From: an uncultured Pseudomonadota bacterium | GTDB taxonomy: Bacteria; Pseudomonadota; Gammaproteobacteria; Burkholderiales; SG8-39 | DNA: 64,000 nt | Assembly (NCBI GenBank): GCA_903921325.1 | Contig: CAIXPL010000038.1 | Location: forward strand, 50,119 to 114,118 | Direction: 5' to 3' | Part shown: one piece after another, positions 3,017-61,430 of the stretch | How the letters are laid out: every line of letters begins with the position of its first letter | How positions within the stretch are numbered: position 1 is the stretch's first letter | Program-made: the position numbers and the translations under genes | Notes under the pieces: generated by a model | The model's input: the letters and a program-made list of their open reading frames with translations, nothing else | Database searches by the model: none | Told to the model about the DNA's origin: nothing

Positions 3017-3019
3017 ACC

Positions 3020-10087: not shown

Positions 10088-10131
10088 CTGATGACCATCG
10101 CCTCTATCTCAATCAACAAACGAGGTTCCCC

Positions 10132-11450: not shown

Positions 11451-11755
11451 AACGACACGACCGCCCGAGTGCACTTCAAGCCATCGTGCAGGCTATCCGC
11501 ATGGTAATCCCCTGGTGGCTGTTCGCGCTGGTCACCACGACACTCGATGCGATGCTCGGGTCAGCGGAGGTTGCGGTCGTGCTGAAGGTATTCGCCTGGG
11601 ATCTCGCCTTCGGTGCTTACCTGGTGTTTATCGTTTTCCGGACACCCTCGTCGCAGTCCTACGATCGCCTGGATTTCCGCGGCGCGGCCCAGAACGCCTA
11701 CCGGGCACTGTGGTGGCCCTGGTATGTCATCCAATGGGTCAAGCGACGCCGCTAA
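11447..11755 (+). CDS. Small inner-membrane protein in tra operon (two TM segments)
   Basis: 102 aa from the ATG at 11447, which overlaps the preceding stop. Two hydrophobic segments are visible ('VIPWWLFALVTTTLDAML' and 'VFAWDLAFGAYLVFIVF'), followed by a basic C-terminus ending 'WVKRRR', suggesting a cytoplasmic tail. In F the equivalent place before traF holds the small membrane protein TrbE, but similarity beyond topology cannot be seen. Upstream in-frame codons overlap the previous gene and are not used. Confidence 0.6.
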   Translation: MKRHDRPSALQAIVQAIRMVIPWWLFALVTTTLDAMLGSAEVAVVLKVFAWDLAFGAYLVFIVFRTPSSQSYDRLDFRGAAQNAYRALWWPWYVIQWVKRRR

Positions 11756-11787
11756 GGCACCGACCCGACTCAATAAGGACAGCTCCC

Positions 11788-12597: not shown

Positions 12598-12606
12598 GAG
12601 AGCGCC

Positions 12607-14067
12607 ATGCCCAATCGAACCCAGCGTCCTGTCCTTTGCGGTCGTTCTTTCAAAACGACCGTCATTGCGCTCGCGGTGAGCGCGGCGCTTGTCGCCCCCA
12701 CGCACGCAGGGTTCCTGGAGGATTTTTATTCAAAATCGGGGGCTGGTGCCAACTCGACGCCGCCCAGTATCATGAAAACGCAGACACTCAACGTGATCAG
12801 TGGCGGCGGCTTCATGCTGCGCGCCCCCCAAAAGAATTTCATCCCCTATCACATCACGCCGCCCAGCATTAAAGCCGGATGCGGCGGCATCGACATGTTC
12901 ATGGGATCGTTTTCCATGGCCAACAAGGATCAGTTCATCGCATTTCTGCGCAACATTGGGCAGAACGCAGCGGGACTTGCCTTCAAAGTCGCGTTGAACG
13001 CAATCTCGCCTGACCTCAACGCCCAGATGCAGTCAATCGCGGACGACTTGAATCACTGGACGCGACAATTCCAGAACTCTTGCGCTTTGGCGAACCAGGC
13101 ACTCAACAGCTCCGGGGCGAGCGCATTCATCACCGATGCAATCACCGAAGCCAAGGGTAATCTCCTCGCCACTGGCCAGGCCTCGGACGCCGGGGACGCG
13201 AATAGCAAAGTCGCCACCGATGGCGCAACGGCACTCCAAAACACAAGGCCTGCGACCACCGAAAACGGGGTTACAGTGGAAACTAACGAATCGAACATAT
13301 TGTGGGATGCCTTCAAAAGCTCCCGACAAACCGATGTAAATGGCACAGACCTTACGGCGGACGAAAAGGGCATGATCATGGCCTTGCTCGGCACCGTGAT
13401 CATTCAGAAGGATCCGACGACGACCGGAACCGAGACCAACTTTATAGCAATAACAAAGGCCTCCATCATTACGCTGGCCGACCTCGTGAGCACGGTCGAT
13501 GACACCAATGGGGTAAAAATCTACACCTGCTCCGACGACCCCTGCTTGAATCCCACCGAGGGAGTCAGCCAGTCAGCGCCGCTTGCGGTCCAGGTCTACG
13601 CAGCCGCCACGAATCTCTCTACCGCGATTCAATCGCGCCAAATGCCCGATCTCGCAGACATGGCGCTTGTCTCCAAAACGAGCATTCCGATCTACAAGAT
13701 CATCTCTACTCTGGCGCAACCCGGCAACGCGTTTTCAGACATTGCCGGCGACCTCATACCTCAATACTCGCAAGCAGTCGCCATCGAATTGGCCTCGGAA
13801 TACGTGCGCCATGCCATGACCGCGGCGCTCCGGGCTATCGATTTAGCCGACAAGACCAGCCGTAAACACGCATTTCAAGATGCGCGTCGCACACTGCGCG
13901 ACCGTGCTCAGAAGGTGTACGAGAACGCCAATGCAGAGAGCATGACCATTTACGCGAAGATCCGCGCGCAAGCAGCAATGCTCGAAAAGATCGAACAATT
14001 GCAGAAGGGCCTGTACGGCAATATGAGCGCACAGTTAGCTGCCAACATGCGCTCGCCGCACCATTGA
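12607..14067 (+). CDS. traH: TraH, F-type pilus assembly protein
   Basis: 486 aa (F TraH 458). Signal peptide 'VIALAVSAALVAPTHAGF'. Family features: 'GGGFMLRAPQKNFIPYHITP', 'KAGCGGIDMFMGSFS' with the conserved cysteine, and a long helical C-terminus with coiled-coil character ('AQAAMLEKIEQLQKGLYG'). TraH is a periplasmic/outer-membrane-associated protein needed for pilus assembly. A good Shine-Dalgarno (AGGAG, 12595-12601) precedes the ATG. It is followed by traG after 13 bases. Confidence 0.95.
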   Translation: MPNRTQRPVLCGRSFKTTVIALAVSAALVAPTHAGFLEDFYSKSGAGANSTPPSIMKTQTLNVISGGGFMLRAPQKNFIPYHITPPSIKAGCGGIDMFMGSFSMANKDQFIAFLRNIGQNAAGLAFKVALNAISPDLNAQMQSIADDLNHWTRQFQNSCALANQALNSSGASAFITDAITEAKGNLLATGQASDAGDANSKVATDGATALQNTRPATTENGVTVETNESNILWDAFKSSRQTDVNGTDLTADEKGMIMALLGTVIIQKDPTTTGTETNFIAITKASIITLADLVSTVDDTNGVKIYTCSDDPCLNPTEGVSQSAPLAVQVYAAATNLSTAIQSRQMPDLADMALVSKTSIPIYKIISTLAQPGNAFSDIAGDLIPQYSQAVAIELASEYVRHAMTAALRAIDLADKTSRKHAFQDARRTLRDRAQKVYENANAESMTIYAKIRAQAAMLEKIEQLQKGLYGNMSAQLAANMRSPHH

Positions 14068-14080
14068 GCGAGCCGACTTC

Positions 14081-17000
14081 ATGACCTACACGATCTACGC
14101 CTATTGGAACGGGGATCAACTCCTCGCCGTACTCAATGCGATCGCCGCCATCATGAACGGGAGCGATTACACCGGGTTGCTCAAAGCCTTGGGGATCGCC
14201 GGCCTGCTCGCGGCCGCGACCGCAGCCCTGGTGAAGTCTCGTGGCGAGGAGGCTTGGTCGTACTTCCTGATGGTCGCGCTCTTCTATGGAGTACTGTTTG
14301 TCCCCCGAAGCAGCGTCGTCATTCAAGACGTCCGCAGCGGAAACGTCTATACCGTCGCCAACGTCCCTCTTGGTGTTGCGTTCTTCGCCTCAGAAACCAG
14401 TCATATCGGGTATTGGCTCACCACACAATTTGAGACGTTTTTTACACCGGTCGACTCGGTGAGTTTTTCCAACACCGGCATGGTCTTTGGCGCTCGAATG
14501 ATCGCCGAGATGCAGAAACTCCAAATTACGAATCCAGCATTGAACGAGGATCTCACGACCTTCGTCGCGGACTGTGTGCAGCCCGAATTGGCTGGCAACA
14601 GCGCCGCCTTGCAGGAAATGGCGTCCACCACCGACCTGTGGGGATGGCTTGGCGGCGCAGGCGCGTTCTCCCTGAATCCGGGTCGCATGACCTACGTCAT
14701 GGAGAACAAAGGAACGGCGGCCGCCGTGACGCTCCCGTGCGATTTAGCCTACTTCAACTTGAACGCGTATTTATCACTCGAAGTAGAGAAACAACAAAAC
14801 CGGCTCGGCACAACGATGAATCCCGGCAATGCGCAGGCCGCTGCGATCATCGCTAATCAAGTCGGTGCTGTTCAGAGCCTGATGCTCAACAACTCGCAGA
14901 GCGCCCTCCAAAACATCCAGCAGGGCATGATGCTGAATTTCATGCAGAACGCGAATGTGACGATTGCGCAGATGCAGAACAACCCCGCGGCGGTCCAGGT
15001 CGCGCTCGCCAGTTCGATGGCGGAGGCCTCATCGGGGACGAGCTATTTCGCGATGTCCAATGTTGCCGAGAAGACGTTGCCGCTCATTCGCAACGCGATT
15101 GAGGCGGTCATCCTTGGTGTGTTTCCGATTGTGTTCGTGCTCATCATCGTCGCCGGCGTCTACGCCGGCTCTGTCCTACGCAGCTACGTTTTTGCGCTGT
15201 TCTGGTTGCAACTGTGGGCGCCCCTATACGCAATCATTAACTATCTGGCCACAGCCAGTGACACGCTGGCCTTCGCGGCGATAGGGGACGGCATGGGTGG
15301 CGCGGGGACGGGCGCGAACATAATTAACTCTGCTCACCTTTACTCGGCATCCCTCGGTAGCCAGTCGATCGCCGCCATGCTCACGTTGTCGGTACCTGCC
15401 ATCGCCTATGCGTTGGTGAAGGGCGGTGAGGTCGCCATGAGCAGCGTGGCGAGCGGACTCATGTCACCTTCGCAGGGTGCTGCGCAAAAAGCGGGCGATG
15501 CAATCGGCGAGGGCAACATCCGCATGGGCGACGTCGGCTGGGGCAACGTCAACACGTTTAACGATTCCCGAAACAATTTCAGTCAGAACGGGTTTTCAGA
15601 CAAAGTTACGAATTTCGACAGCAGCACCGGTAACAAAAACAACATATCGCAGGAGTGGACAGACCCCAATATGAGGACTAATAAGTCTGCTGAGGGAACC
15701 TCCATTAACGGACCCGGAGGCGTTAGTATTCTTCATGCAAACCAAAGTGATCTCGGCTTACAACTGCGGACCACCTTCTCAAGCGGATTGGCCAACACGG
15801 TCGAGTCAGGCGTCCAAACCCAGCTTGGCGAAAGGGCATCTGCCGCTCGCTCCAAAGTGTTGGAAACCACAGAGGGATTAACCAACAGCGCGGAGTGGAA
15901 AGCAGCCTGGACAGCTGCCACCCAGAGAGGCCTCAGTGTTGGAAGCGACGCTTCACATATCAAAGGTAGCTCCCGCGGTGGTGATGCAAGCTCCGGAGAA
16001 GGCCTTAACGACCAAAACACGACGAAACGAGACGCAGGGTGGGATGCGAAGGTCCAAGGAACCGTCTACACAGAAGGAAGCGCAAAGATTGGCCTCAACC
16101 TCTTTGGAACCGGGGGCGAGACCAAGACCGGCTTCAACGCGCAGATGAACGTGAGTGCTCATGGCGGCCAGGCCGTCTCCCAAACAAGGGGGGTTCACAC
16201 AGATGCTGGTTTGAAGAACATCCTTTCGAACAAAGAGGCGTTCGATGAAAATGACAAAATTCTCAATGACATTCGATTGAACGGTTCTAGCGAGGAAGTG
16301 CGCGGAAAGGCGGAGCAATTGCAAACCCAGCTGCGTCAAGCAGAGTCCGCCACTCAAGCGAGCGAGACATTTCTCGCGAAAACCAAATCGGCTAGCTCGG
16401 GTGAACGGCGCAGCGACGATGCTTCTACTTCGTTTAGCGTGAACGAGACGAACGAAGTGATCAAAAAATTGCACGGGCAAGGAATGAGCGACGCCCAGAT
16501 TCTCCAGGCGGCACAAGGACGAGGCCGACCCGGGTTCGATAACCTCTTGGACGCCGCCATTCAAGTGAAGAGGGAGGCTGCCGAACAGGCGATGACGGGA
16601 ATGCGAAGACCTGACTCAGCAAGTAGCCTGTTGGACGAAGGCAAACAGGCCGTGGACAATCAAGCGAACCAGGATCGCGGTGCCGTCATCATAAAAAACG
16701 CCGAATTTGCAGCGAAAATCGCACACCGCCAGCAACAAATGGAACGCGAAGGAACAGTGCGAGCGAATGCTCCTTCCGCACAGACAGTGCAAGCTGCCGC
16801 AGAGAGTACGCGAGCAATGATTAACAGTGGCTCAAATGACCAGCTGTTGGAACAGACCATGGTAGCCGGCACCGTTGTCGCCGCCAAAGCGCTGATGGAT
16901 AAGGATGTGGCCGACAAGTTTTTTGTCGGCGCCGCATTCTTACGCCCTGGCAGTCCGACTGAAATGCAGAGAGAACTCGTTTCAGCCATGCGGGACGACC

Positions 17001-17188
17001 CCAACCTCAGACAGAACATTGCCAAGGTCGGTGTACTAAATACGCAAGGGCACACCCCTGATGATCAAACCCTCAGAGACATAGCGGGCGCACTACAAAA
17101 GCGCCAATCGTCGACAGCTGCTTCGGATCCCACACCAAAGGCGACACTCAACAAACTGCCACGCGGGGAAATAAACAATCTTCGTTGA
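14081..17188 (+). CDS. traG: TraG, F-type mating-pair stabilisation and assembly protein
   Basis: 1,035 aa (F TraG 938). The N-terminus 'TIYAYWNGDQLLAVLNAIAA' is the family signature. Membrane segments lie at about residues 45-60, 70-85, 340-365, 370-395 and 430-450, followed by a long hydrophilic region (about 460-1035) with no cysteines apparent and many Q/S/N residues. The N-terminal domain takes part in pilus assembly; the C-terminal domain is linked to mating-pair stabilisation and entry exclusion in F. The last gene of the T4SS block; a GC palindrome follows 17 bases after the stop. Confidence 0.93.
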   Translation: MTYTIYAYWNGDQLLAVLNAIAAIMNGSDYTGLLKALGIAGLLAAATAALVKSRGEEAWSYFLMVALFYGVLFVPRSSVVIQDVRSGNVYTVANVPLGVAFFASETSHIGYWLTTQFETFFTPVDSVSFSNTGMVFGARMIAEMQKLQITNPALNEDLTTFVADCVQPELAGNSAALQEMASTTDLWGWLGGAGAFSLNPGRMTYVMENKGTAAAVTLPCDLAYFNLNAYLSLEVEKQQNRLGTTMNPGNAQAAAIIANQVGAVQSLMLNNSQSALQNIQQGMMLNFMQNANVTIAQMQNNPAAVQVALASSMAEASSGTSYFAMSNVAEKTLPLIRNAIEAVILGVFPIVFVLIIVAGVYAGSVLRSYVFALFWLQLWAPLYAIINYLATASDTLAFAAIGDGMGGAGTGANIINSAHLYSASLGSQSIAAMLTLSVPAIAYALVKGGEVAMSSVASGLMSPSQGAAQKAGDAIGEGNIRMGDVGWGNVNTFNDSRNNFSQNGFSDKVTNFDSSTGNKNNISQEWTDPNMRTNKSAEGTSINGPGGVSILHANQSDLGLQLRTTFSSGLANTVESGVQTQLGERASAARSKVLETTEGLTNSAEWKAAWTAATQRGLSVGSDASHIKGSSRGGDASSGEGLNDQNTTKRDAGWDAKVQGTVYTEGSAKIGLNLFGTGGETKTGFNAQMNVSAHGGQAVSQTRGVHTDAGLKNILSNKEAFDENDKILNDIRLNGSSEEVRGKAEQLQTQLRQAESATQASETFLAKTKSASSGERRSDDASTSFSVNETNEVIKKLHGQGMSDAQILQAAQGRGRPGFDNLLDAAIQVKREAAEQAMTGMRRPDSASSLLDEGKQAVDNQANQDRGAVIIKNAEFAAKIAHRQQQMEREGTVRANAPSAQTVQAAAESTRAMINSGSNDQLLEQTMVAGTVVAAKALMDKDVADKFFVGAAFLRPGSPTEMQRELVSAMRDDPNLRQNIAKVGVLNTQGHTPDDQTLRDIAGALQKRQSSTAASDPTPKATLNKLPRGEINNLR

Positions 17189-45439: not shown

Positions 45440-45844
45440 TTAGGTTATTTCGGGGCGATCGACGTCACCTTCACGCAGCGCACTGAGCAACGTGATTTGC
45501 TCAAATGGCTTGCAAAGGTAGACGTCCGCACCAGACGCGAGTGCCGCATCGCGGGACGCGGGCGTGCTGTCCGCGCTGATGATGATGATACGTGGCCACG
45601 CGTCGCGAGGAACTGTTAGGTGGAGCTGTGCAATCACGTCCGGGCCTTTCATGCGCGGCATATTGACATCCAGAATCGCGACCTGAAATTGCGCGCCGAG
45701 GAGGATCTCAAGTGCGTCCGCGCCGTCGGCCACAGCCGCGACCTGGTGGCCCGCCTCCACAAGGAATCGACGGAACAATTCACGCATTGCCGGCTCATCT
45801 TCCGCAAGGAGAATGTTGAGCGGCGGGCCGGCGTGTTCCCTCAC
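45440..45844 (-). CDS. Stand-alone response-regulator receiver protein
   Basis: 134 aa from a GTG overlapping the stop of paralogue B (GTGA). Complete CheY-like fold: acidic pair in 'ILLAEDEPAMRELF', phosphoacceptor D59 in 'AILDVNMPRMKGPDV', 'IIIISAD' with Ser, and 'VYLCKPFEQ' with the conserved Lys. No output domain is attached, so it must act by protein interaction or in a phosphorelay. The 81-aa protein encoded just upstream is a possible partner. Confidence 0.9.
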   Translation of the reverse strand: MREHAGPPLNILLAEDEPAMRELFRRFLVEAGHQVAAVADGADALEILLGAQFQVAILDVNMPRMKGPDVIAQLHLTVPRDAWPRIIIISADSTPASRDAALASGADVYLCKPFEQITLLSALREGDVDRPEIT

Positions 45845-50075: not shown

Positions 50076-50096
50076 TGGTCCGCGCCGATCGCCCAC

Positions 50097-50615: not shown

Positions 50616-50638
50616 TACGGAATTCCCGCTATTCCCAC

Positions 50639-51919
50639 ATGGCTGACCTGCCCTCCCCTCGCTATCCTCTGCTTCGGCCTGTTCGGCCGGGCGGCGAAAT
50701 CGTCGGCACTGGAGTGGCAGGGACGGTGGAGCCAGAGTGTGGTGACCGACGCGCGATCGAAGAATGGCTTCGTTCCTACGCGACGAGATCCGCACACACG
50801 GAGCGATCGGCGCGTAGAGAGATCGAGCGCTTCCTGATGTTTCTCGATGTCGTCAAGGGACCAAACAATAGGCACCTGCCGTCGGTGACAACCACCGACG
50901 CTCTCAACTACCAGGTCTTCCTAACCCGCCCCCACGATTTTCCAGAGATCATTGCCGCGCTGGGTGACGGAGACGTGCTCGCGCGTTTTGGCCGAACGAC
51001 ACCACCCTTCAACTTTTGGTCCGGCAAGCCCGGCGAACGCAAGCCGAGCCGACTCACTGCGACCAGCCGCAAAATCGCTATCACGTACCTGGCGCGAATG
51101 TATCGAAAGCTAAGCCACGTCCGTGATGCGGATGGTGCTCCTTACGTCACCATCAATCCATGGGAGATCGTGTCGGAAGGAAAGACGTTCCGTCCGATCA
51201 GCATCACGCAGGCGCTGACGAAGGACGAATGGTCCGCCGTCAAACAAGCGATCGAAGCGATGCCCCGGGACACTGATGATCGCATCGCGGCCTATCACCG
51301 CACGCGCTGGACGATTCAGCTGCTCTATCGGCTCTGGCTTCGCCGCGAAGAAGCAGCGAGCCTGCGCATGGCCAGCTTCGTGCAAACTCCTGACGGATGG
51401 GAAGTCCGGTTCATCGGCAAGGGCCGCAAAGAGGCGGCGATCAGTGCGAGCGATGCCTTGATGGACGAGCTGCGAGTCTACCGGGCGAGTCTGGGCCTTG
51501 GTCCCCACCCTGAGTTCGGCGAGGATCGCCCAGCGATTGGAGCGCTGCGAACTTCGCACGATGCGCCTGGCACGGCCCTGCGTACCGGCGGGACGACGCA
51601 AGACGAACGGGCACACTCAATTTCGTCACTTAGGGACGGTGTCAAGCCGCTGACGATTTACCGCATCTGCAAGCATATCTTCGAACGAGCAGCGTCGATC
51701 TTAGACCCCGTCGATCCCGCGGCGGCCAAGCGACTGCGCCATGCCTCCCCGCATTGGATGCGCCACAGCGGCGTAACCCATGCGCTCGAAGGTGGTGTTC
51801 CGGATCGATACGTGCAGGCCCACGCCCGTCATGCGAATCGATCAATGCTTGATCGCTATGATCACAAGGACCGGCGCGTTGGCCGCAACCACATCAATGC
51901 GCTCAAGGATCGCGAATGA
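50639..51919 (+). CDS. Tyrosine recombinase/integrase
   Basis: 426 aa from the ATG at 50639 (an upstream in-frame start at 50582 would overlap the protease gene). N-terminal SAM-like core-binding domain ('SYATRSAHTERSARREIERF'). Catalytic region: Arg in 'LYRLWLRREEAASLRM', Lys in 'FIGKGRKE', 'HWMRHSGVTH' (H-x-x-R), 'ARHANRSML' and the nucleophile Tyr in 'LDRYDHK'. All residues are present, so it is probably active. It may resolve multimers, integrate, or drive cassette exchange. An insertion at about 310-350 is low-complexity. The stop overlaps the receiver gene ATG. Confidence 0.92.
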   Translation: MADLPSPRYPLLRPVRPGGEIVGTGVAGTVEPECGDRRAIEEWLRSYATRSAHTERSARREIERFLMFLDVVKGPNNRHLPSVTTTDALNYQVFLTRPHDFPEIIAALGDGDVLARFGRTTPPFNFWSGKPGERKPSRLTATSRKIAITYLARMYRKLSHVRDADGAPYVTINPWEIVSEGKTFRPISITQALTKDEWSAVKQAIEAMPRDTDDRIAAYHRTRWTIQLLYRLWLRREEAASLRMASFVQTPDGWEVRFIGKGRKEAAISASDALMDELRVYRASLGLGPHPEFGEDRPAIGALRTSHDAPGTALRTGGTTQDERAHSISSLRDGVKPLTIYRICKHIFERAASILDPVDPAAAKRLRHASPHWMRHSGVTHALEGGVPDRYVQAHARHANRSMLDRYDHKDRRVGRNHINALKDRE

Positions 51920-52395
51920 CGGGCCGAGCGTTTTTGCGGGTGATTACTGGTGGGCTGATGGGTACGTCGCCCAAGCACGATCGGGGCGCTCCGCAAAATC
52001 GAACGCATTGCGTGATCATCGTCGACGACGATCCGGTGAGCGTCGCGCTGTTCACCAAAGCGGTAAACAAAGTTGGCGTGGACGTCTCCGTTCACGGTTT
52101 CTCTAACCCAGCCGAAGCGCTGGCTTTTACGCGACGTGAGCGCCCTGCCCTGGCGATCGTCGACGTGCACTTCGACCGCGGCGAGATCAACGGGCTCGAG
52201 TTGATCCAGCACATTCGTGCGCAAGCGCCTGACGCGCCGCCGTTTCAGACCATTCTGATTTCAGCCGACAAGGACCCCGAAATCGGCCGCCAGGCGGCGG
52301 CCCTTGATGTTCAGGTCGTCATTCACAAAGCGATCAACGCAGCCGCCATGATGGAGCTTGCTCGCGCGCTGCTCGAACTGCCACCGCGGAAATGA
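51916..52395 (+). CDS. Stand-alone receiver protein coupled to the recombinase
   Basis: 159 aa. 'VIIVDDDPVSVALF' (acidic triad), phosphoacceptor D83 in 'LAIVDVHFDRGEINGLEL', 'ILISADKD' and 'VVIHKAINA' with the conserved Lys. No output domain. ATGA overlaps join it to the recombinase upstream and to the AcrVA2-like gene downstream. It is the nearest receiver to the RpfF/RpfC pair (about 1.2 kb from rpfF), so it is a candidate output for that phosphorelay. Confidence 0.88.
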   Translation: MTGRAFLRVITGGLMGTSPKHDRGAPQNRTHCVIIVDDDPVSVALFTKAVNKVGVDVSVHGFSNPAEALAFTRRERPALAIVDVHFDRGEINGLELIQHIRAQAPDAPPFQTILISADKDPEIGRQAAALDVQVVIHKAINAAAMMELARALLELPPRK

Positions 52396-53393: not shown

Positions 53394-53430
53394 CGATCCG
53401 GCGTGGACGGTGAGCCCGTGGGTTGGTTGC

Positions 53431-53455
53431 CGGGTTCGTTAACGGAATTAACCCG
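53431..53455 (+). other. Hairpin after the AcrVA2-like gene
   Basis: CGGGTT and AACCCG arms enclose an inner GTTAA/TTAAC inverted repeat. It is 38 bases past the stop and is followed by AAAATG rather than T, so it is either a weak terminator or an operator. The remaining gap to 53643 contains a TTGACA (53558-53563) that could be the rpfF -35 box, but no good -10 follows. Confidence 0.45.
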
Positions 53456-53643
53456 AAAATGTGCATTTATTCACAGAATAGCGCATCTCTGGTCCGACCC
53501 AGGGGCCATCATTCGCGCTGTGGTGAGACGTTTTCGCCCCGTTTCGCGTTTTAACACTTGACAGTGCATTGGTTTTGTGCGGTTGCGACACTTCGCTAGC
53601 GCTGCGGTTCCCCAGAACAGTTCGACGCCAAAAGGACAACATC

Positions 53644-54588
53644 ATGATGCCCCAGCAAGCTCAATCGACCTCGCAGTATCACCTGATCGATGTGGCCACC
53701 GACCCGGCAACCGGGGTAGTCTGGCAGCGTATGAACCCGCGGGAGCGTCCCTGCTACTCAATGGAACTGCTGCGCGAGATGCGTCATCACGACGCGTCTC
53801 TGCAGGCCTCGGGGGGCAAAGTTCGCGCTGCCGAAAAGACCTTCGATGTCAAGTACGTGGTCTACGGCTCCACCGTGCCAGGCGTATTTAATCTGGGGGG
53901 CGATCTCTCGGCGTTTGTCGAATTGCACCAACGCGGGGACCGGGTGGGCCTCAAGGCTTACGCCACCGCGTGCATCGACGTGCAATGGAATCGTTTGCAA
54001 AATCTCGCTCTGCCTCTCACAACCATTGCTCTGGTGGAAGGACGCGCATTCGGCGGCGGGTTCGAAAACGCCCTCGCCTCCTCGGTCATCATCGCTGAGC
54101 GCGAGGCCCAGTTTTGCTTCCCGGAAGTCACCTTCAGCCTGTTTCCGGGGATGGGCGCGTACTCGATTCTCAAACGTCGGATCGGACATGCGCCGGCGAT
54201 GAAAATGATTCTCTCAGGGGATCGCTACTCAGCGGCTGAGTTGCACGAGATGGGCGTGGTGGACGCCGTGTTCGATCGCGGTGATGGTGAGAAAGCGGTG
54301 TTTCAGTTCATCCGTAGCCACCGCCGGCATCACCAGTCGGTCATTGCCATGCAGCGTGTGCAGCGTATTGCGGAGCCGATCTCGCGCGCTGAGCTTGATG
54401 ACGTGGTCGATGTCTGGTGCGAGTCGGTGTTCAACATCGGTGAGCGTGATCTGAAAGTCATGCGCAGCTACGCTGCAATGCAGACTAAGATGTGGGCGGG
54501 CTCAGGATCGCGGAGCACCGACGATGCGCGACCCGCCCTACAGGCCGCGAACGTGTGTCACGAGCAGGGAGAACGCGCCACGGCGTAA
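53644..54588 (+). CDS. rpfF: RpfF-like DSF synthase (crotonase family)
   Basis: 314 aa from the ATG at 53644 (AAGGAC eight bases upstream; the frame further upstream has no start signal). 'GVFNLGGDLSAF' and 'ALVEGRAFGGGFENALASS' form the oxyanion-hole loops. 'FCFPEVTFSLFPGMGAYSIL' is nearly diagnostic for RpfF. The two catalytic glutamates fall at E141 and E161, the same numbers as in Xanthomonas campestris RpfF. The enzyme makes the diffusible signal factor, a cis-2-unsaturated fatty acid, from acyl-ACP. It is convergent with the RpfC-like gene, 95 bases apart, as a mobile quorum-sensing pair. Confidence 0.93.
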   Translation: MMPQQAQSTSQYHLIDVATDPATGVVWQRMNPRERPCYSMELLREMRHHDASLQASGGKVRAAEKTFDVKYVVYGSTVPGVFNLGGDLSAFVELHQRGDRVGLKAYATACIDVQWNRLQNLALPLTTIALVEGRAFGGGFENALASSVIIAEREAQFCFPEVTFSLFPGMGAYSILKRRIGHAPAMKMILSGDRYSAAELHEMGVVDAVFDRGDGEKAVFQFIRSHRRHHQSVIAMQRVQRIAEPISRAELDDVVDVWCESVFNIGERDLKVMRSYAAMQTKMWAGSGSRSTDDARPALQAANVCHEQGERATA

Positions 54589-54622
54589 TCGTGGCGGGAA
54601 GCTCATTCGCATAGACTGGCTT

Positions 54623-54648
54623 GGCCACAAGGCTTCACGTAGGTGGCC
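54623..54648. terminator. Weak hairpin between rpfF and rpfC
   Basis: GGCCAC (54623-54628) and GTGGCC (54643-54648) form 6-bp arms between the two convergent stops. No T run is present on either strand, so termination is only suggested by position. Confidence 0.35.
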
Positions 54649-54683
54649 GAATCCGGCTCTGCGATCAGCGTGTAGGTGCGCAA

Positions 54684-57293
54684 TCAGTTCCGCTTGCTTG
54701 TCGCCGCCTCGAAGGCCGCCACTGAGCGCCTGACGGTGTCCTCGATCGTCGCGATCATCTGCGCGCCTTGGGATCTCAGGGTGTCCGTTGGCGTGCTCGC
54801 CATGTCTGCGCACAGGCGCGCGACAGCGGTCGCCCCAACGCTTCGGCTACTGCCTTTCAGTGTCTCTGCGTGATCTCGAAGAGCGGTAAAGTCGCTGCGG
54901 CTGAGCGCGTCGGTCATCCCTGCAAACATGATCCACGCGTCCTGAGCATAGCCGTGAATCAAGTTCCGGGCGAATTCGGTGACGTCGCCGCTGGGGATCG
55001 ATGTCGCGTTCATGATCTGGCGTGCGTCGATGAGATCCTCGGCCTCACCACCTCTCGGCGCGTTCAGACTCCACGCGCGCGCCTGCACAGCAGCTTGCAG
55101 CTGCTCGGGCTGTGGTCGTTCCGACGGTGGCGCGAACGCCTGCACCATTGCGTGGACAAGGACTTCAATGTCCATGGGTTTGGGAACGACGCACGCAAAT
55201 CCGGCGCGCAAGGCGTGCTGTACAGTTTCTTCTTTGACGTCGGCCGTTACGAGCAAGGCCGGCACCACGGGGTCTGCAGCGGCCGTGCGATACAGATTGA
55301 GGGCCTCAATGCCGTCCAGGTCGGGCATGTGCTGGTCAATCAGGAAAAGATCAAAACTCACGTCGGCTGCCATTTCCAGGAATTCGTAGGCGTACTTGGC
55401 CACCGAATGTTCGATCCCGAGCTTCTCAAGCCAGGTCGAGATCATGAGGCGCGATACCGAATTGTCGTCAACCAGAAGGACCTTGACATATTGGATCGGC
55501 TTGAGCTCGGCAACCAGACGTGCGAGCAGATCATCGCCATCGGGCGCCTCCGGAGGCGCCGGCGTTTGCACCGGCACACGAACAGTTGTGGGCGTCGGCC
55601 CTTCGGGGGCGAGCCTTCCCATAAGGGTGGCTGCCACTTCGGACTGAGATGCGCCACGGCGCATGGAACCGGAGAATCCCGCATGAGCAAACTCCGCGCT
55701 CATTGCTGACGCGCGTGTCAGCACAATCAGCCTGCATAGGTCTGCCCTGTCGCCCGCGCGAGCCTGGGCCGCCTGGGCAATTCGTTGCGCGGCCGCGATC
55801 CCCAACGATTCGGGCACAAACACCCACTCGGGTGGGCTTGCCGTCGCGTTGATGATACCGATCGCCACCGTGACCTCCGTGGCTACGGTCGTTTCGCAAC
55901 CCAATGCGCGCAGGGATGCGATCAGGGGGTCGAGGGCTGCGTCAACCGCCCCGGCCAACATCACCGTACCAAGGCGTCCGGCGCGCGGCGGTATCACCAG
56001 AGAACCCTCTACCGGGATATCGAAGGCCAGCGTGCTGCCCCGGCCCAGGTCGCTGTCTAGGGTGATATCCCCGCCCATTCGCCGGGCAAGATCGCGTGCA
56101 ATCGTGGTTCCGAGCCCTGCGCCCGTTGCGGGCCGGGTCGATCCTTCATGGACCTGGCTGAATTTTGCGAAGACGCGATCGAAGTTTTCTTTAGCAATTC
56201 CGATGCCGGAGTCGCTGATGCTGAACACTAGGCGAAATCCCACCGGCCCAGGATCGCGGTAACTGACGGTCACCTCCACGCTGCCGGAGTCAGTAAATTT
56301 GACTGCGTTGCCAGTGAGATTCAGGAGAACTTCGCGAACAGATTTACGGTCCATGGACACCGACGCGGGTAAAGCCGGGTCAACATGCGCTAGGAGTCTG
56401 ATGCCTCGCGCTCGCACCTGCACCTCGATCATGGTCAAACATTCGAGGACGCACTCGCGCAAGTTGGTCGGGCTTCTCTGAACCGGTGAGTCACCCGCTT
56501 CTATGCGGGAGACATCCAACGTACTCTCCACCAGGTCCAGGAGCCCCGCTGTGGAGGCGCGAAGGTGCCGCAAATACGTCGCTTGCTCGTTGCTCAGGGA
56601 CGTCAGTTCGAGGAGTTGGGCGTGACCAATGATGCCGTGGAGTGGTGTGCGAAATTCGTGCGACACCATCGCAATGAAGTCACTCTTCGCGCTGCTGTGT
56701 GCCTCGGCACGAGCCTTGGCCTCGTGAATCGTCCGGATGAGACGAGAGGCGTAGGAAGGAATCGCGATAAGGGTAAGCACCATGGCCCCGGAGAGGAATA
56801 AATGATCGTGCCAAAACGGTGTAGTCATCATGACCACGGCGAACCCGGTCAGGTTGAAGATCTGCGATAGCCGAAGATAGGGAACGCCGTAGCGAAACCC
56901 ATAGCCCAGTGTGATCCAGAAATACAGGCCGAGGCATGGCGTGCCGATCTCGCCGGTCAGCAACAGGCATGCAGTGAGCACCACGCTGTCATGGATTGCT
57001 GCGCAGACCCGTCGTGAGGTAGACACCCCGGGTGAGGCGAGCAACCAGGCGAGCAGGGACAGGGAGACGGCCATTGACGCGGCAAGTGTGGTCATGGTCG
57101 AGGTGATGAGAGCCGGCGATTCCGGCAGGAACCAGCCCACCGACCCGAAGTACACAGCCAGTAGGGCCACGATGCAGATGCGGATGAGGATCTGTTCGTG
57201 TTCCGAGTCCTCACGCCGCGTCAGTCGTAATTTGAGGTTCGAGAGCAAACCATCACCCCGCTCGGGCCAGGAGCCAGTAATTCCATGTGCCAT
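54684..57293 (-). CDS. rpfC: RpfC-like hybrid sensor histidine kinase
   Basis: 869 aa from the ATG at 57293, nine bases after AGGAG; 57299 is an alternative. About five membrane segments (35-185) resemble the DSF sensor input of RpfC. Then come HisKA ('VSHEFRTPLHGI', H212), HATPase ('LNLTGNAVKFTDSG' and 'DSGIGIAKENFDRVF'), a degenerate receiver-like part (about 440-560), a true receiver ('LLVDDNSVSRLM', D653 in 'LFLIDQHMPDLDG') and an HPt domain with H808 in 'LRDHAETLKGSSRSVGA'. The order TM-HK-REC-HPt is that of RpfC. No RpfG is present in the window. It lies 116 bases downstream of rep on the same strand, so some read-through is likely. Confidence 0.9.
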   Translation of the reverse strand: MAHGITGSWPERGDGLLSNLKLRLTRREDSEHEQILIRICIVALLAVYFGSVGWFLPESPALITSTMTTLAASMAVSLSLLAWLLASPGVSTSRRVCAAIHDSVVLTACLLLTGEIGTPCLGLYFWITLGYGFRYGVPYLRLSQIFNLTGFAVVMMTTPFWHDHLFLSGAMVLTLIAIPSYASRLIRTIHEAKARAEAHSSAKSDFIAMVSHEFRTPLHGIIGHAQLLELTSLSNEQATYLRHLRASTAGLLDLVESTLDVSRIEAGDSPVQRSPTNLRECVLECLTMIEVQVRARGIRLLAHVDPALPASVSMDRKSVREVLLNLTGNAVKFTDSGSVEVTVSYRDPGPVGFRLVFSISDSGIGIAKENFDRVFAKFSQVHEGSTRPATGAGLGTTIARDLARRMGGDITLDSDLGRGSTLAFDIPVEGSLVIPPRAGRLGTVMLAGAVDAALDPLIASLRALGCETTVATEVTVAIGIINATASPPEWVFVPESLGIAAAQRIAQAAQARAGDRADLCRLIVLTRASAMSAEFAHAGFSGSMRRGASQSEVAATLMGRLAPEGPTPTTVRVPVQTPAPPEAPDGDDLLARLVAELKPIQYVKVLLVDDNSVSRLMISTWLEKLGIEHSVAKYAYEFLEMAADVSFDLFLIDQHMPDLDGIEALNLYRTAAADPVVPALLVTADVKEETVQHALRAGFACVVPKPMDIEVLVHAMVQAFAPPSERPQPEQLQAAVQARAWSLNAPRGGEAEDLIDARQIMNATSIPSGDVTEFARNLIHGYAQDAWIMFAGMTDALSRSDFTALRDHAETLKGSSRSVGATAVARLCADMASTPTDTLRSQGAQMIATIEDTVRRSVAAFEAATSKRN

Positions 57294-57409
57294 GATCATT
57301 AGCTCCTGTGTTGTGGCGCCTTCGATAGCGACGCCAGAGTGTGTGCCTATTCGTCGCGGTTGCGTTCACGCGCAACCGCATTCAGGTGATGGATCGCTTA
57401 TGACAATGC

Positions 57410-58756
57410 TCAAGTGCTCGCTACCTGGGCCGATTGTGAGAGCCGCTGCGCCGCGTATTGCCAAAGATCGGTGTCGGTCACTGGGCCCCAGGTGTGCTCG
57501 ACGAACCATTGCACAAACGGAGTGGCCATTGGTGAGAATGGTCCGGCTTTGCGTATGACCCCGCGCATAGCGCTTGGTGCTTGCTCCAAGTAACGCTCGA
57601 ACGCCGCGGTGACGTCGCCCTCAGTCATCTCATTCAGCAGTGCCCTCCCCTCTTGCATTCGCTGGGCGTCGTAATCAGCGCGCAGTTGAGCGGTCGGATC
57701 CTTCTGCAGCTCCTTCGATTTCGGCTTCGAGGGTGTTTGTGGAGCGGAAATCGGTTCAGGCACGCCGCTCTTCAAGATCGATTTCAGGTACGCACGCCTT
57801 GAGGTGATTTGCGGAAGTTTCGCGTTTTTTACCCTCTCCCTCATTGCATCGATTGCCGCACGCAGCTGCACCGCATCGTATTCTGCCAGCAGCTCGTCGG
57901 CATCCTTCTGACTCAATCCCATCGCCATGATCGGCTCCCTTAGCGACGAATCCACCAGAGGCGGCGGAGGGAACTCTAAGCTGACTTGCGGTCGCATTCG
58001 AGTCGTAAAATGCAAGCTCACAACTCGGCGTCCGACGCGCTTTTCGACCAAGGTGATCTCGATATCTGACACAGCGTTCACCTCAGCGATTGCCGGCTTC
58101 AGATCATCTCGCTTCCAATACTTGTACTCTGGCGGATCCGCAGACACGGGTTTTCCACTGAGTTGATGGAACCAGAGTTTCGTTTCTCGCTCTGGCGTCC
58201 GGTGACCGGGCGACGTCGCGTATTGCCGGCATACTTCCCATAGCGCAAGCGCAGGTCCGCTCTTGAACATCCGCTGGTAGTAGAGCGAGAGGTGCGTGTA
58301 GGCAGAGGGGCGCACCACCAGTTCGTGCACGCCAGGTGGGAAAGCCCAACCAAACCACACCGGTTTTCCGGGGCCCTTCCCGAGTGGATAGGCAAGCAGG
58401 ATACTCGCCACCAGTGCCTCGGAGCGCCATTGCTTAGCGTCCTCCATGACGACCTGAATACTCTGAATGGACTGGGCTGACTCTTGTAGCGTTTTCGTGT
58501 CGTTCGAGTTGAAATCGGCGTCCGCGATGATCGTAGATAGCGGTAGCCAGAAATACTGCTCGGCACCTGGCACATCGGGTGGTGCATTCTTACCAGGGAC
58601 TTTCAAGAGCTGTGAGTGACCAAGCATCACATTGAAAACTTTGCGGCTTAGTAGGGTCAGCCGGCCCTGCCGGATCCGCACCCCGACAACGTCATTGGCT
58701 TTGCGGACTGCCAACGCGTTCGCCGAGTCGTCCCTTTGATCATTGTGATTCAGCAT
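57410..58756 (-). CDS. rep: Plasmid replication initiator (Rep_3-like)
   Basis: 448 aa. The N-terminal region 'LTLLSRKVFNVMLGHSQLL' and 'STIIADADFNSNDTKTLQES' then 'IQSIQVVMED' is the first winged helix of iteron-binding initiators. 'ALALWEVCRQYATSPG' and 'RETKLWFHQLSGKP' with 'KRDDLKPAIAEVNAVSDIEI' form the second. The C-terminal 160 aa are an extra charged region. The adjacent iterons on the far side of the start support the call. It presumably binds them to open the origin and represses itself; a half-iteron (CTCACC) abuts the ATG. Confidence 0.85.
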   Translation of the reverse strand: MLNHNDQRDDSANALAVRKANDVVGVRIRQGRLTLLSRKVFNVMLGHSQLLKVPGKNAPPDVPGAEQYFWLPLSTIIADADFNSNDTKTLQESAQSIQSIQVVMEDAKQWRSEALVASILLAYPLGKGPGKPVWFGWAFPPGVHELVVRPSAYTHLSLYYQRMFKSGPALALWEVCRQYATSPGHRTPERETKLWFHQLSGKPVSADPPEYKYWKRDDLKPAIAEVNAVSDIEITLVEKRVGRRVVSLHFTTRMRPQVSLEFPPPPLVDSSLREPIMAMGLSQKDADELLAEYDAVQLRAAIDAMRERVKNAKLPQITSRRAYLKSILKSGVPEPISAPQTPSKPKSKELQKDPTAQLRADYDAQRMQEGRALLNEMTEGDVTAAFERYLEQAPSAMRGVIRKAGPFSPMATPFVQWFVEHTWGPVTDTDLWQYAAQRLSQSAQVAST

Positions 58757-58773
58757 GGTGAGTAGATTATGCC

Positions 58774-59150
58774 CCTGTCATTTCACCATAACAACTGTCC
58801 TGCAAAAGCTCACCTTGCAACCCGTATCCACTCACCCCAGCTCCCGCAAAAGCTCACCTATGGGGGGCATGATCGGGATAGTGCTCACCGACATACCTGT
58901 AACAACTCACTCACTCCCCTGTAGAAGCTCCCCATTCATTCAATAACCATTTGAAAATAAAAGACTTTATGAGAAGCATAATCATCCAAAGTTTCAATGA
59001 ATAAGAACTTCAATCTCTCAATGTAGACCGGGCGAAGCTCCCGTAAAAGCTCACTTCTCCATTCCTACATGTCAGCATCACTTGATTCGCCAGATCAGAG
59101 AACTCGCGAGAGCTCGGCTTGAAAGAGTTACCTCCCGTCATAGCTCACCT
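58774..59150. other. Iteron-containing replication origin (oriV)
   Basis: Direct repeats with consensus CYCNTGCAAAAGCTCACCT. Best copies are at 58801-58815, 58846-58859, 59041-59055 (GTAAAAGCTCACT) and 59134-59150. Weaker ones lie at 58774-58790, 58876-58890, 58896-58912, 58918-58932 and 59103-59118. Between them, 58932-59025 is strongly AT-rich and a likely melting region. No clear DnaA box was found inside. The position between rep and parA is typical for iteron plasmids. Confidence 0.85.
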
Positions 59151-59250
59151 AAACAGTACCTTTTGAAGGCATCTTAGCTAATGCAGTGCATACAGGCAAA
59201 ATCAGTGCGAGTATACTATTACGATGTTAGTTTCATAAAAGGTTATTCGC

Positions 59251-60450
59251 ATGCTATTAGGAACATTTGAATCCCAGATAACTAAAACTCCTTTGCTCAC
59301 GCTCGATAATGTTGCCGAGCAGGCCCAAACGGCATCGGCAATGCTCGCGCGTATTCGGGGGGATTTATACAACCCGTCCATGGTAAAGCAACCACCGGTC
59401 TTCAGTGGCGCAAAGGTTGCAGAGCTGTGTGGGATCGACAAGCCCGCATTTCACCGGAGGCTTGCTCGCAAGGACCTGCCAGAGGGTCGGGCTATTAACG
59501 CCGCACGTCGAGAATTTACGCTGATCGAGGCGCGACAATGGGTGGCGGCTCACAGCGTGGGTCATGTTCGCGTCCCTGGCGAAAAGGCAGTTACGATCGC
59601 TGTAGGTCTTTTCAAAGGTGGTGTTGGAAAGACCACGACTGCAATGTCGCTTGGACAAGGACTCTCGCTCAAGTTCGGCTATAAGGTTCTGCTTGTTGAT
59701 TTGGATCCACAAGGCTCGCTCAGTTCGCTCTGCGGTTTTCAGCCCGATGCTGATATCAGCGAGGACCAAACTGCGTATGCCCTCTTCGAGGGGTCGCAAC
59801 AATCCCTGCGCTACGCGGTAACGCCGACCTATTGGGATGGGATTGACTGTGTGCCTGCCTCACCCTCCCTTTTTGCCGCCGAATTCCACCTACCAGCTCG
59901 ACAGTCCAAATCCCGGGGAGACGGTTTCCGATTTTGGGAAGTGCTCGACCGCGGTCTTGAAGAATTGCGGCCTGAGTACGACGTCATCATCATAGACACG
60001 CCCCCTGCCCTGTCTTATGTGACGCTGAATGCGTTCCTTGCTGCGGATGGCCTGATTTTACCGATTCCTCCTAAGGGCCTGGATTTCGCTTCTGCGGCGC
60101 AGTTCTGGACGCTTTTTTCGGACATTGCAGGGGAGCTTTCGTCGCAGTCACTGGCACCGAAGACGTACCGGTTCATTAACGTACTGCTCTCAATGGTCGA
60201 CCTGACTGACCCAGTCGCCCCGACGGTGACTAAGTGGATTGGTGCCACCTATCGCGATAAAGTGTTGCCGGTTGAGATTCCAAAGACAAACGTGGCCAAC
60301 GTCGCAGGAGTTCAATTCGGGACTGTGTACGACGTGTCCCGATACGCCGGTAAGGTCGCAACATACGCTCGTGCACGTACAGCGTATGACCGAGTTGTAG
60401 ATCTCGTCGAGAAGCAAATTCGAGCTTGTTGGCTGAGTGCGAATAGTTAG
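59251..60450 (+). CDS. parA: ParA partition ATPase (type Ia)
   Basis: 399 aa. The N-terminal HTH ('AKVAELCGIDKPAFHRRLAR', about 54-73) marks the long ParA type that represses its own promoter. The deviant Walker A is 'FKGGVGKTTTAMS' (121-133), followed by 'VLLVDLDPQGSL' and 'DVIIIDTPPALS'. It positions plasmid copies by ATP-driven DNA binding. AAAGG lies about nine bases before the ATG, and a possible -10 (TATACTAT) about 38 bases upstream. Eleven bases separate it from parB. Confidence 0.95.
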   Translation: MLLGTFESQITKTPLLTLDNVAEQAQTASAMLARIRGDLYNPSMVKQPPVFSGAKVAELCGIDKPAFHRRLARKDLPEGRAINAARREFTLIEARQWVAAHSVGHVRVPGEKAVTIAVGLFKGGVGKTTTAMSLGQGLSLKFGYKVLLVDLDPQGSLSSLCGFQPDADISEDQTAYALFEGSQQSLRYAVTPTYWDGIDCVPASPSLFAAEFHLPARQSKSRGDGFRFWEVLDRGLEELRPEYDVIIIDTPPALSYVTLNAFLAADGLILPIPPKGLDFASAAQFWTLFSDIAGELSSQSLAPKTYRFINVLLSMVDLTDPVAPTVTKWIGATYRDKVLPVEIPKTNVANVAGVQFGTVYDVSRYAGKVATYARARTAYDRVVDLVEKQIRACWLSANS

Positions 60451-60461
60451 GGAGCGTAGCC

Positions 60462-61430
60462 ATGGGAATTAGTAAGATGTTCGATAAGGTCAACTTGGAC
60501 GAAGTGCGTCCCACGGAGACTGTTCCGCGATCTCCGGCGAAAACTGCTCCAGGCCGGCTAATTCAGTTTGGAAATGAACTCGAAGAGGCGCAGAAGCAGC
60601 TCGACGCCTATCAGGGGTCGCTGCCAACCAAACGTCTGGATCCCAAAATCATACGAACCTCAAGTCTTAGAAATCGGCATGAGGACGCGTTTAAGGGTTC
60701 GAATTGGGAGCAGTTCAAGCAGGACATCGCACTTGCCGGTGGGAACACCCAGCCGATCAAGGTGCGACCGATCGACGGCCCGGAAGCACAGTACGAGATC
60801 GTGTTCGGTCATCGGCGCCACCGGGCGTGCCTCGAGACCGAGATTCCAGTGCTGGCTATGATCGAGCAGATCAGCGACAAGGACCTGTTTGAGTCGATGA
60901 CTCGGGAGAATCTCGGTCGCAATGATCTGAGCGTTTGGGAGTGGGGCCAGCATTACAGGCGCGGTTTAGAGCATGGATTCTATGCTACGCAAGCTCAGCT
61001 CGCTGCGGCCAATCAAATGTCCGAGGGACACGTCGCGGTGTGCTTGCAGGTTGCTGCGCTGCCATTCGAGGTAGTGTGCCTATTCTCGTCACCTTTGGAC
61101 ATTCAATGGAGATGGGGAACGAAGCTGGCAGAGTTGCACAAACACGACGCTAAAAGCCTGAGAGCCCGCGCGATTGCGCTCGCCTCAGTCGAGCCTCGAC
61201 CCGCCGCCGCCAAAGTGTTCGCGGCCCTCGCGGGGGCCGCCAGTGGGGGCTTGGGCGTTAAGTCATTTGAAATTCAGCGCGCTGGTAAGAGGGCGGCGTT
61301 GATTGAGTCGAAGGGGAAAGTCGTTTCTGTCAAGTTTGCACAGGGAGTTATTCCGGCTAGGCGACTCAGCGAACTACGGTCTTTGGTCGAAGGGTTTTTG
61401 GCTCAAAATTCTAGCGATGCTAGTCTTTAG
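60462..61430 (+). CDS. parB: ParB centromere-binding CTPase
   Basis: 322 aa. The N-terminal 'LDPKIIRTSSLRNRHEDAF' gives the ParB start. CTP-binding boxes are 'YEIVFGHRRHRACLE' and 'SMTRENLGRNDLSVWEWGQH'. The HTH is around 'TQAQLAAANQMSEGHVAVCL' (about 176-195). GGGAG is eight bases before the ATG. It binds parS and stimulates ParA. No parS could be recognised. Confidence 0.93.
   Translation: MGISKMFDKVNLDEVRPTETVPRSPAKTAPGRLIQFGNELEEAQKQLDAYQGSLPTKRLDPKIIRTSSLRNRHEDAFKGSNWEQFKQDIALAGGNTQPIKVRPIDGPEAQYEIVFGHRRHRACLETEIPVLAMIEQISDKDLFESMTRENLGRNDLSVWEWGQHYRRGLEHGFYATQAQLAAANQMSEGHVAVCLQVAALPFEVVCLFSSPLDIQWRWGTKLAELHKHDAKSLRARAIALASVEPRPAAAKVFAALAGAASGGLGVKSFEIQRAGKRAALIESKGKVVSVKFAQGVIPARRLSELRSLVEGFLAQNSSDASL

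What the first reader, a model, noticed from the sequence alone, without database searches (positions are those of the whole stretch)
53644..57293. Complete DSF quorum-sensing pair (RpfF plus RpfC) in a plasmid maintenance core
RpfF keeps both catalytic glutamates (E141, E161) and RpfC keeps the five-TM sensor, HK, REC and HPt. They are convergent and sit directly beside rep, iterons and parAB, opposite the tra genes. RpfF/RpfC are usually chromosomal. A mobile copy would let the element make and sense a fatty-acid signal itself. No RpfG is in the window, so the output must be elsewhere or different.
Basis: partly seen in the sequence, partly recalled or inferred. Interest (0 to 1): 0.9.

Follow-up and report, generated by a model that had tools for sequence, protein, structure and literature searches.

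The report
Plasmid DSF signal maker, relay lost
A likely circular 114-kb bacterial plasmid with conjugation genes carries, right beside its replication gene, its own gene pair of the kind that makes and senses a fatty-acid quorum signal, but the sensor lacks the histidine used to pass the message on, so the plasmid would probably emit the signal under its own control and leave the response to its host's own copy of the system.

Summary
The rpfF/rpfC pair is real and lies on a plasmid: the window is the end of a 114,118-base contig whose two ends repeat exactly over 141 bases, as in a closed circle, with rep, iterons, parAB and F-type tra genes. RpfF keeps Glu141 and Glu161; RpfC keeps the DSF-sensing residues, kinase and receiver. 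Two things change the picture. First, the same genome has a second convergent rpfF/rpfC pair on another contig, taken as chromosomal (about 71% and 51% identical), and one RpfG elsewhere. Second, the plasmid RpfC is not complete: its HPt phospho-histidine is a glutamate (E812). Of the 120 best homologues 119 have His; the other is a fragment of this same protein. The HPt domain has also drifted. In Xanthomonas the RpfC receiver controls RpfF without phosphorelay, while output needs it. I therefore read the plasmid pair as a signal-making module that likely feeds the host's own DSF circuit. In the plasmid collection the 18 records with an RpfC-like sensor and the 60 RpfF-type records listed do not overlap; 22 relatives' loci and the host's other locus show no homologue of this Rep, ParA or ParB. 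No function was tested; DSF production, effects on transfer and host assignment remain open.

The parts
53644..54588 (+). rpfF, DSF-synthase-type crotonase, 314 aa
   Evidence: ECH_1 and NF006452 above cut-off; Glu141/Glu161; the four best PDB hits are two chains named RpfF (6dgn, 3m6m) and two named only as enoyl-CoA hydratase type (5fus, 7zq7); 71% to the copy on C28. Below NCBI's RpfF equivalog cut-off (186 of 550 bits)
54684..57299 (-). rpfC, DSF-sensor-type hybrid histidine kinase, 871 aa
   Evidence: HisKA 204-269, HATPase_c 317-431, REC 607-717, Hpt 794-835; R29, D31, S32, E33, Q36 equal five Xcc DSF-sensing residues; 51-52% to the RpfC on C28
54864..54866 (-). codon 812 of rpfC (GAG, Glu) where the HPt phospho-His stands in homologues
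   Evidence: His in 119 of 120 homologues; the remaining one, P0121, matches this protein at 100% over residues 199-871 on another contig
53460..53475 (+). CRP/Clp-like box TGTG-N8-CACA, 184 bases before rpfF
   Evidence: only exact match in the 114-kb contig; box with at most one mismatch at -183 to -195 in 6 of 22 other rpfF loci scanned, all 3 of the genus among them
57355..57380 (-). inverted repeat (9-bp arms, 6-bp gap) between rep and rpfC
   Evidence: 8 of 2000 shuffles of this 110-base stretch have one as good; seen by eye first
53578..53603 (+). partial copy of that repeat before rpfF (TGCGGTTGCG shared)
   Evidence: the 9-mer GCGGTTGCG occurs three times in the contig, all before rpfF or rpfC; the number of copies is not above chance (26 of 100 shuffles of the window have 3 or more) and sharing of a 10-mer is weak (104 of 2000 shuffles)
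57410..58756 (-). rep, Rep3-type replication initiator, 110 bases upstream of rpfC on the same strand
   Evidence: Rep3_C above cut-off; at best about 40% to annotated plasmid replication initiation proteins
58797..59151 (+). iteron-like 20-nt repeats, four copies; a fifth at 61520-61539
   Evidence: family D1
59251..60450 (+). parA-type partition ATPase
   Evidence: AAA_31 above cut-off; TIGR03453 below its cut-off
60462..61430 (+). parB-type partition protein
   Evidence: ParB_N and SoPB_HTH above cut-off; TIGR00180 above cut-off
51916..52395 (+). stand-alone receiver domain, upstream of rpfF
   Evidence: Response_reg
45440..45844 (-). stand-alone receiver domain, about 46% to the REC of the C28 kinase next to rpfF
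50837..51919 (+). tyrosine recombinase
   Evidence: Phage_integrase on the longer frame 50582-51916
1970..17188 (+). F-type conjugation genes (TraU, TraN, TraF, TraH, TraG_N); TraK, TrbI/TraB, TraC and a coupling protein lie on the contig before the window, TraC running into it

Best explanation
A likely circular plasmid bearing conjugation genes carries a convergent rpfF-rpfC pair beside rep and parAB whose RpfC has lost the HPt histidine used for phosphorelay, so it likely works as a signal-making module that times its own DSF synthesis and would be read out by the host's other RpfC and its RpfG. Shown by sequence: the catalytic glutamates, the DSF-sensing residues, the kinase and receiver residues, the missing HPt histidine, and the second pair plus one RpfG-type gene in the same genome. 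Inferred: at low DSF the plasmid RpfC receiver holds plasmid RpfF inactive; DSF binding releases it; the extra DSF diffuses out and is sensed by the C28 RpfC (intact HPt motif) in the same cell and in neighbours, which changes c-di-GMP through RpfG. Also inferred: the CRP-like box ties rpfF to the host's Crp/Clp-type control, and rpfC may be read from the rep side. The gain for the plasmid would be to raise or advance its hosts' density response (crowding and biofilm favour transfer). That last step is speculation.
For: Contig of 114,118 bases with 141-base identical ends. Catalytic residues and pocket residues G85, G137, G138, G169, M170, W258 kept. The DSF-sensing motif R-x-D-S-E-x-x-Q is kept whole. 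HPt His is Glu; His in 119 of 120 homologues and the H-x-x-K/R-G motif in 23 of the 24 RpfC-type rows aligned, the plasmid RpfC being the one without. Of sites identical in six RpfC rows of this group (two of them the same protein; three from database contigs of unknown replicon), 15 of 34 in HPt are changed on the plasmid against 32 of 250 in sensor, kinase and REC (Fisher 4e-5); the C28 RpfC in the mirror test shows 0 of 19 against 13 of 231. RpfC repression of RpfF runs through REC without phosphorelay while output needs phosphorelay (PMC4504480, passages). The only HD_5 match of the genome lies on C35, in a protein 59-67% identical to the rpfG beside rpfC in 19 family loci.
Against: No function was measured. 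The host has two HPt matches in frames of only 123 and 116 aa (C12, C37) that could take the relay from the plasmid REC, as described for PA1396 in PMC4504480. The plasmid also carries a second RpfC-like kinase with an intact HPt motif (C38:34650-36650) and two lone receivers, so phosphorelay on the plasmid is not excluded. RpfF misses NCBI's RpfF equivalog cut-off. The RpfF-REC contact surface was not tested. An HPt in decay could also mean that the whole pair is on its way out; third-codon changes dominate, but dS is saturated. The place of the plasmid rpfF next to the genus' copies has weak support (80/76). Whether C38 lives in this host rests on binning; tetranucleotide make-up is not decisive. 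That C28 is chromosomal is inferred from gene order shared with two same-genus genomes.
Confidence: 0.45

Rival explanations
1. A passenger copy: the pair was captured from a chromosome of this genus and is carried as neutral or mildly useful cargo, drifting, with no role for the plasmid.
For: Same convergent order as in the 22 of 23 other loci where rpfC was found; plasmid genes are about as far from the genus' copies as the C28 copy is from those of G001 and G002; the HPt domain is drifting.
Against: Catalytic and sensing residues are whole; the divergence is large yet both frames are open and third-codon changes dominate (saturated); the CRP-like box is kept.
Confidence: 0.25
2. A rewired full circuit: the plasmid RpfC receiver passes phosphate to an orphan HPt or works with the plasmid's second RpfC-like kinase and lone receivers, giving the plasmid its own DSF-controlled output, for instance on rep or tra.
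For: Second RpfC-like kinase with HPt motif downstream of the coupling-protein gene, same strand; two lone receivers on the plasmid; two short HPt frames in the host; repeat motif before rpfF and rpfC.
Against: No DNA-binding output domain was found on the lone receivers; the second kinase lacks the D17/S18 sensing residues; nothing links them to rpfC.
Confidence: 0.17
3. A decoy or dominant-negative sensor: the HPt-dead RpfC competes for DSF, pairs with the host's other RpfC or holds its other RpfF, and so damps the host's quorum response.
For: Sensor and REC are kept while the relay residue is lost.
Against: Would not explain keeping an rpfF with intact catalytic residues beside it.
Confidence: 0.08
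4. Wrong host or assembly: the circular contig belongs to another organism in the sample and was binned with this genome.
For: The closed contig is tied to the other 37 contigs by binning only; Rep found in no other same-family genome of the 149 searched; tetranucleotide match to C28 only third of 24 loci.
Against: Its rpfF and rpfC group with this genus' copies, the best other family member being at 49%. This affects the host, not the plasmid finding.
Confidence: 0.05

Closest known systems
RpfF/RpfC/RpfG DSF system of Xanthomonas campestris
   Same: Synthase with the two glutamates, hybrid sensor with the same sensing residues, convergent gene order (order per PMC4517397 section 18)
   Different: On a plasmid beside rep and parAB; HPt histidine missing; no rpfG beside it; second copy in a genome that has its own
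Stenotrophomonas maltophilia rpf-1 / rpf-2 variants (PMC4517397)
   Same: Variant RpfF/RpfC pairs, likely moved between strains, with different control of DSF synthesis and cross-talk
   Different: Two variants that mark two groups of strains; no plasmid and no HPt loss in what I read (abstract and section 18)
PA1396-type DSF sensors of Pseudomonas aeruginosa
   Same: RpfC-like sensor without a working HPt of its own
   Different: PA1396 has no HPt domain; it relays through an orphan HPt to a DNA-binding regulator (PMC4504480, passages)
AHL quorum systems on conjugative plasmids (TraI/TraR of Ti plasmids; recalled, no call)
   Same: A plasmid that carries its own signal synthase and receptor
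   Different: Different signal class and receptor; direct control of tra genes is known there and untested here
RpfF-like genes with an EAL-domain (RpfR-type) neighbour on plasmid records (PLSDB hits H1, H6, H11)
   Same: RpfF-type synthase on a record filed as plasmid
   Different: Paired with an EAL-domain gene, no RpfC, no rep or par genes annotated in the stretches shown

Membership tests
RpfF (DSF synthase) | Crotonase family with catalytic Glu141 and Glu161 | tested here: met
RpfF (DSF synthase) | Passes NCBI equivalog model NF053515 (cut-off 550 bits) | tested here: not met
   186 bits; NF006452, the broader family, is met with 322.7 of 177. That the model is tuned to xanthomonads is my inference
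RpfF (DSF synthase) | Closest solved structures are RpfF proteins | tested here: met
   of 155 matches the first four are well ahead of the rest; two are named RpfF (6dgn, 3m6m), the other two (5fus, 7zq7) only enoyl-CoA hydratase type
RpfF (DSF synthase) | Makes cis-2 unsaturated fatty acids | not testable with these tools
   needs an assay
RpfC (DSF sensor) | HisKA-HATPase-REC-HPt order behind a membrane sensor | tested here: met
   (four membrane segments called by a simple scan)
RpfC (DSF sensor) | DSF-sensing residues R15, D17, S18, E19, Q22 (Xcc) | tested here: met
RpfC (DSF sensor) | Phospho-accepting histidine in HPt | tested here: not met
   Glu812; His in 119 of 120 homologues
RpfC (DSF sensor) | REC holds RpfF inactive | not testable with these tools
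   REC residues D611, D612, D655, T and K kept; contact surface not tested
RpfF/RpfC/RpfG cluster | rpfG beside rpfC | tested here: not met
   No HD_5 match on the plasmid; the only one in the genome is on C35
Circular plasmid with conjugation genes | Closed contig with Rep, iterons, partition and T4SS genes | tested here: met
Circular plasmid with conjugation genes | Relaxase and oriT | tested here: inconclusive
   No relaxase family among the proteins scanned; not every gene was scanned and oriT was not sought

The most novel reading that the evidence does not exclude
A plasmid that steers its host's quorum sensing: it carries a signal-only DSF module, a synthase with a relay-dead sensor that serves as a private on/off clamp for it, so plasmid-bearing cells dose themselves and their neighbours with the host's own signal while the host's own circuit does the responding.
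Probability: 0.35. Interest if true: 0.82.

Novelty: new variant of a known kind. Interest (0 to 1): 0.62.

Why it matters
Plasmid quorum sensing is known for AHL and peptide signals (recalled). A DSF synthase-sensor pair built into a plasmid's maintenance region would extend this to fatty-acid signals. The lost HPt histidine separates RpfC's two roles, control of synthesis and relay of the message, in a natural protein, and makes a clear prediction: this RpfC regulates RpfF but sends nothing on. It would let one ask directly whether mobile elements manipulate host density sensing rather than just use it.

Tried and rejected
Chromosomal locus: rejected, the contig closes on itself by 141 identical bases. 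Inactive RpfF: no sign of it, catalytic and most pocket residues are kept. Complete sensing circuit on the plasmid: rejected for RpfC itself because of Glu812. A sequencing error at Glu812 is unlikely: P0121, on a separate 2,759-base ENA contig, matches residues 199-871 at 100% and has the same residue; its first 34 residues lie outside the match, and whether it comes from the same sample I cannot tell.

Shared operator before rpfF and rpfC: kept only as a hint. Three copies of the 9-mer are not more than chance for the window (mean 1.95; 26 of 100 shuffles have 3 or more); only their places are notable. The shared 10-mer is met by 104 of 2000 shuffled pairs and by 124 of 2000 random draws from the contig (draws under 400 bases apart were skipped); the inverted repeat by 8 of 2000. 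I noticed the motif by eye before testing it.

Near-identical plasmids: none in the plasmid collection at megablast sensitivity for 45000-64000. A genome-contig scan returned one locus, on a contig of the same length (89,111) as the same-genus contig G001:C27. A second rpfF in genome G152 turned out to lie beside rpfC- and rpfG-like genes on a 7-kb contig, with no match to this Rep, ParA or ParB. Tetranucleotide make-up did not settle the host, and dS is saturated, so dN/dS says little. In one count I first took the wrong column for residue R15 and repeated it.

Literature: searches gave no title or abstract start that names a natural plasmid-borne rpfF/rpfC pair. I read passages of PMC5391125, PMC8895600, PMC7074816, PMC4504480, PMC9864630 and PMC9513982, and the abstract and section 18 of PMC4517397; of all others I saw the listing only, among them PMC11925244, which holds both 'rpfF' and 'megaplasmid'. 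Subscription papers and preprints are not held.
Full report
What is there. The window is bases 50119-114118 of contig C38 (114,118 bases) in a 4.5-Mb, 38-contig genome. The two ends of C38 repeat exactly over 141 bases, the mark of a closed circle of 113,977 bases. It carries a Rep3-type initiator, ParA and ParB, five iteron-like repeats, and F-type transfer genes: TraK, TrbI/TraB, TraC, TraU, TraN, TraF, TraH, TraG_N and a coupling protein. No relaxase was identified among the proteins scanned. RpfC lies 110 bases downstream of rep on the same strand; rpfF converges on it.

RpfF. The 314-aa protein keeps Glu141 and Glu161 in the Xcc numbering and G85, G137, G138, G169, M170 and W258; position 136 is Phe and 276 is Tyr, where a review (PMC9864630, passages) names Leu. 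It scores 322.7 bits against NF006452 (cut-off 177) but only 186 against NCBI's RpfF equivalog (cut-off 550), which it therefore fails. The four best PDB matches of 155 are two chains named RpfF and two named only enoyl-CoA hydratase type.

RpfC. Pfam finds HisKA, HATPase_c, REC and Hpt. Five residues that PMC5391125 (passages) reports as needed for DSF sensing (R15, D17, S18, E19, Q22) are all present, as R29, D31, S32, E33 and Q36. The kinase His (H214) and the REC aspartates and lysine are present. The HPt phospho-acceptor is not: the motif H-x-x-K-G reads E-T-L-K-G, with Glu812 coded by GAG. In an alignment of the 120 listed homologues of 662, 119 have His there; the other, P0121, matches this same protein at 100% over residues 199-871 and comes from a separate ENA contig. 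Six RpfC rows of this group served as reference (C28, G001, G002 and three database proteins; the G001 row and P0126 are identical, and the replicons of the database rows are unknown). Among sites identical in all six, the plasmid differs at 15 of 34 in HPt against 32 of 250 in sensor, kinase and REC (Fisher 4e-5). The mirror test for the C28 RpfC gives 0 of 19 against 13 of 231.

The rest of the circuit. The same genome holds a second convergent rpfF/rpfC pair on C28, a 278-kb contig (71% and 52%), preceded by an RpfC-like hybrid kinase; its neighbouring genes are shared with G001 and G002, so I take it as chromosomal. The only HD_5 match in the genome is on C35, behind a receiver; that protein is 59-67% identical to the rpfG found beside rpfC in 19 family loci. 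The plasmid also has a relative of the C28 kinase (C38:34650-36650, outside the window, 37-40%), downstream of the coupling-protein gene and on the same strand, with an intact HPt motif but without the D17/S18 residues, and two lone receivers. Eleven HPt places were found in the genome, nine over the cut-off, the plasmid RpfC among them; two are in frames of only 123 and 116 aa.

Comparison with relatives. Of 149 genomes searched, 61 (this one included) have an RpfF at E 1e-40 and only this one has two (at most 15 candidates per genome were scored). Of 399 genomes of the order, 72 (this one included) have one, and only this genome and G152 have two (at most five candidates scored). I examined 23 loci: C28, the two of the other genus members, and the 20 best-scoring of 44 same-family hits, on contigs of 9.7 kb to 2.7 Mb. 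RpfC is found, convergent, in 22 of 23 (the miss, L057, is cut by a contig end); rpfG beside it in 19 of 20 outside the genus and 0 of 3 within it; a relative of the plasmid's Rep, ParA or ParB in 0 of 23 (stretches of 9.7-20 kb, so less than 10 kb on one side in some). Rep itself matched 6 of 149 genomes, this one included, and no other of the same family. In trees the plasmid rpfF falls in one clade with the genus' copies (95/98), beside the other seven rows with weak support (80/76); the plasmid rpfC is in a 100/100 clade with the three genus rows, which stand together at 91/88. Both genes thus likely moved together.

Plasmid collection. Of 72,556 records, 908 have some crotonase match and 18 cover at least 80% of RpfF. 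The RpfC sensor domain matches 18 records at E 0.01, all under 60% identity, and no record covers 80% of whole RpfC within the 5000-record limit. None of the 18 sensor accessions is among the 60 RpfF records listed; the other 848 were not listed. I looked at six RpfF records: three have an EAL-domain neighbour, and none shows annotated rep or par genes in the stretch; that gene table is incomplete. Four of the 18 sensor records were also looked at and show no annotated rpfF-like neighbour. Records near the window's own genome may be left out of that collection.

Regulation. A TGTG-N8-CACA box occurs once in the contig, 184 bases before rpfF. With at most one mismatch the same box stands at -183 to -195 in 6 of 22 other loci scanned, including all 3 of the genus, and at -173 in one more; 15 have none. 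The chance rate on this contig is about 0.09 per 300 bases. The genome has four Crp-type HTH matches over the cut-off. The repeat shared by the rpfF and rpfC upstream regions is a hint only.

How it most likely works. PMC4504480 (passages) states that RpfC's relay residues are needed for output, while its repression of DSF synthesis works through REC binding to RpfF without relay. The plasmid RpfC keeps what the second role needs and has lost a residue that the first needs. The likeliest reading is a signal-making module with its own clamp, whose product is read by the host's other RpfC and its RpfG. The benefit to the plasmid, and any effect on rep or tra, is inference.

Standing. This works like an RpfF/RpfC pair for signal synthesis. 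As a member of the RpfC family it fails one defining feature, the HPt histidine; RpfF fails NCBI's equivalog cut-off while keeping the catalytic residues; and as a cluster it lacks rpfG. I call it a new variant of a known kind.

Noticed in passing
C38:34650-36650 (-), outside the window (L044:14650-16650): Second RpfC-like hybrid kinase on the plasmid with an HPt motif, downstream of the coupling-protein gene and upstream of a pentapeptide-repeat gene on the same strand.
   Followed up: partly
C38:12513-14770 (-), outside the window (L043): Acetate-kinase-type and phosphotransacylase-type genes side by side on the plasmid; acyl phosphates can feed receiver domains (recalled).
   Followed up: no
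18203-21028: Type IIG restriction-modification enzyme of MmeI type.
   Followed up: no
28823-33108: Run of a CcrM/type II adenine methylase-like gene, a DUF5131 gene and a cytosine-5 methylase-like gene.
   Followed up: no
L051 (E. coli plasmid NZ_CP060058.1, 10352-35068): RpfF-like crotonase on an IncK2/Z plasmid inside a cluster with ACP, ketosynthase, SDR, ABC transporter and lipoprotein-sorting genes; a possible fatty-acid product cluster.
   Followed up: no
L077 and L078 (Lelliottia and Enterobacter sp. 638 plasmids): RpfC-type sensor kinase plus response regulator between two large autotransporter genes on two different plasmids, with no rpfF-like gene annotated in the stretch.
   Followed up: no
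G000, G001, G002 rpf loci (L047-L049): In this genus no rpfG stands in the rpf cluster, unlike in 19 of 20 family loci examined; in two of the three an RpfC-like kinase stands upstream of rpfF.
   Followed up: partly
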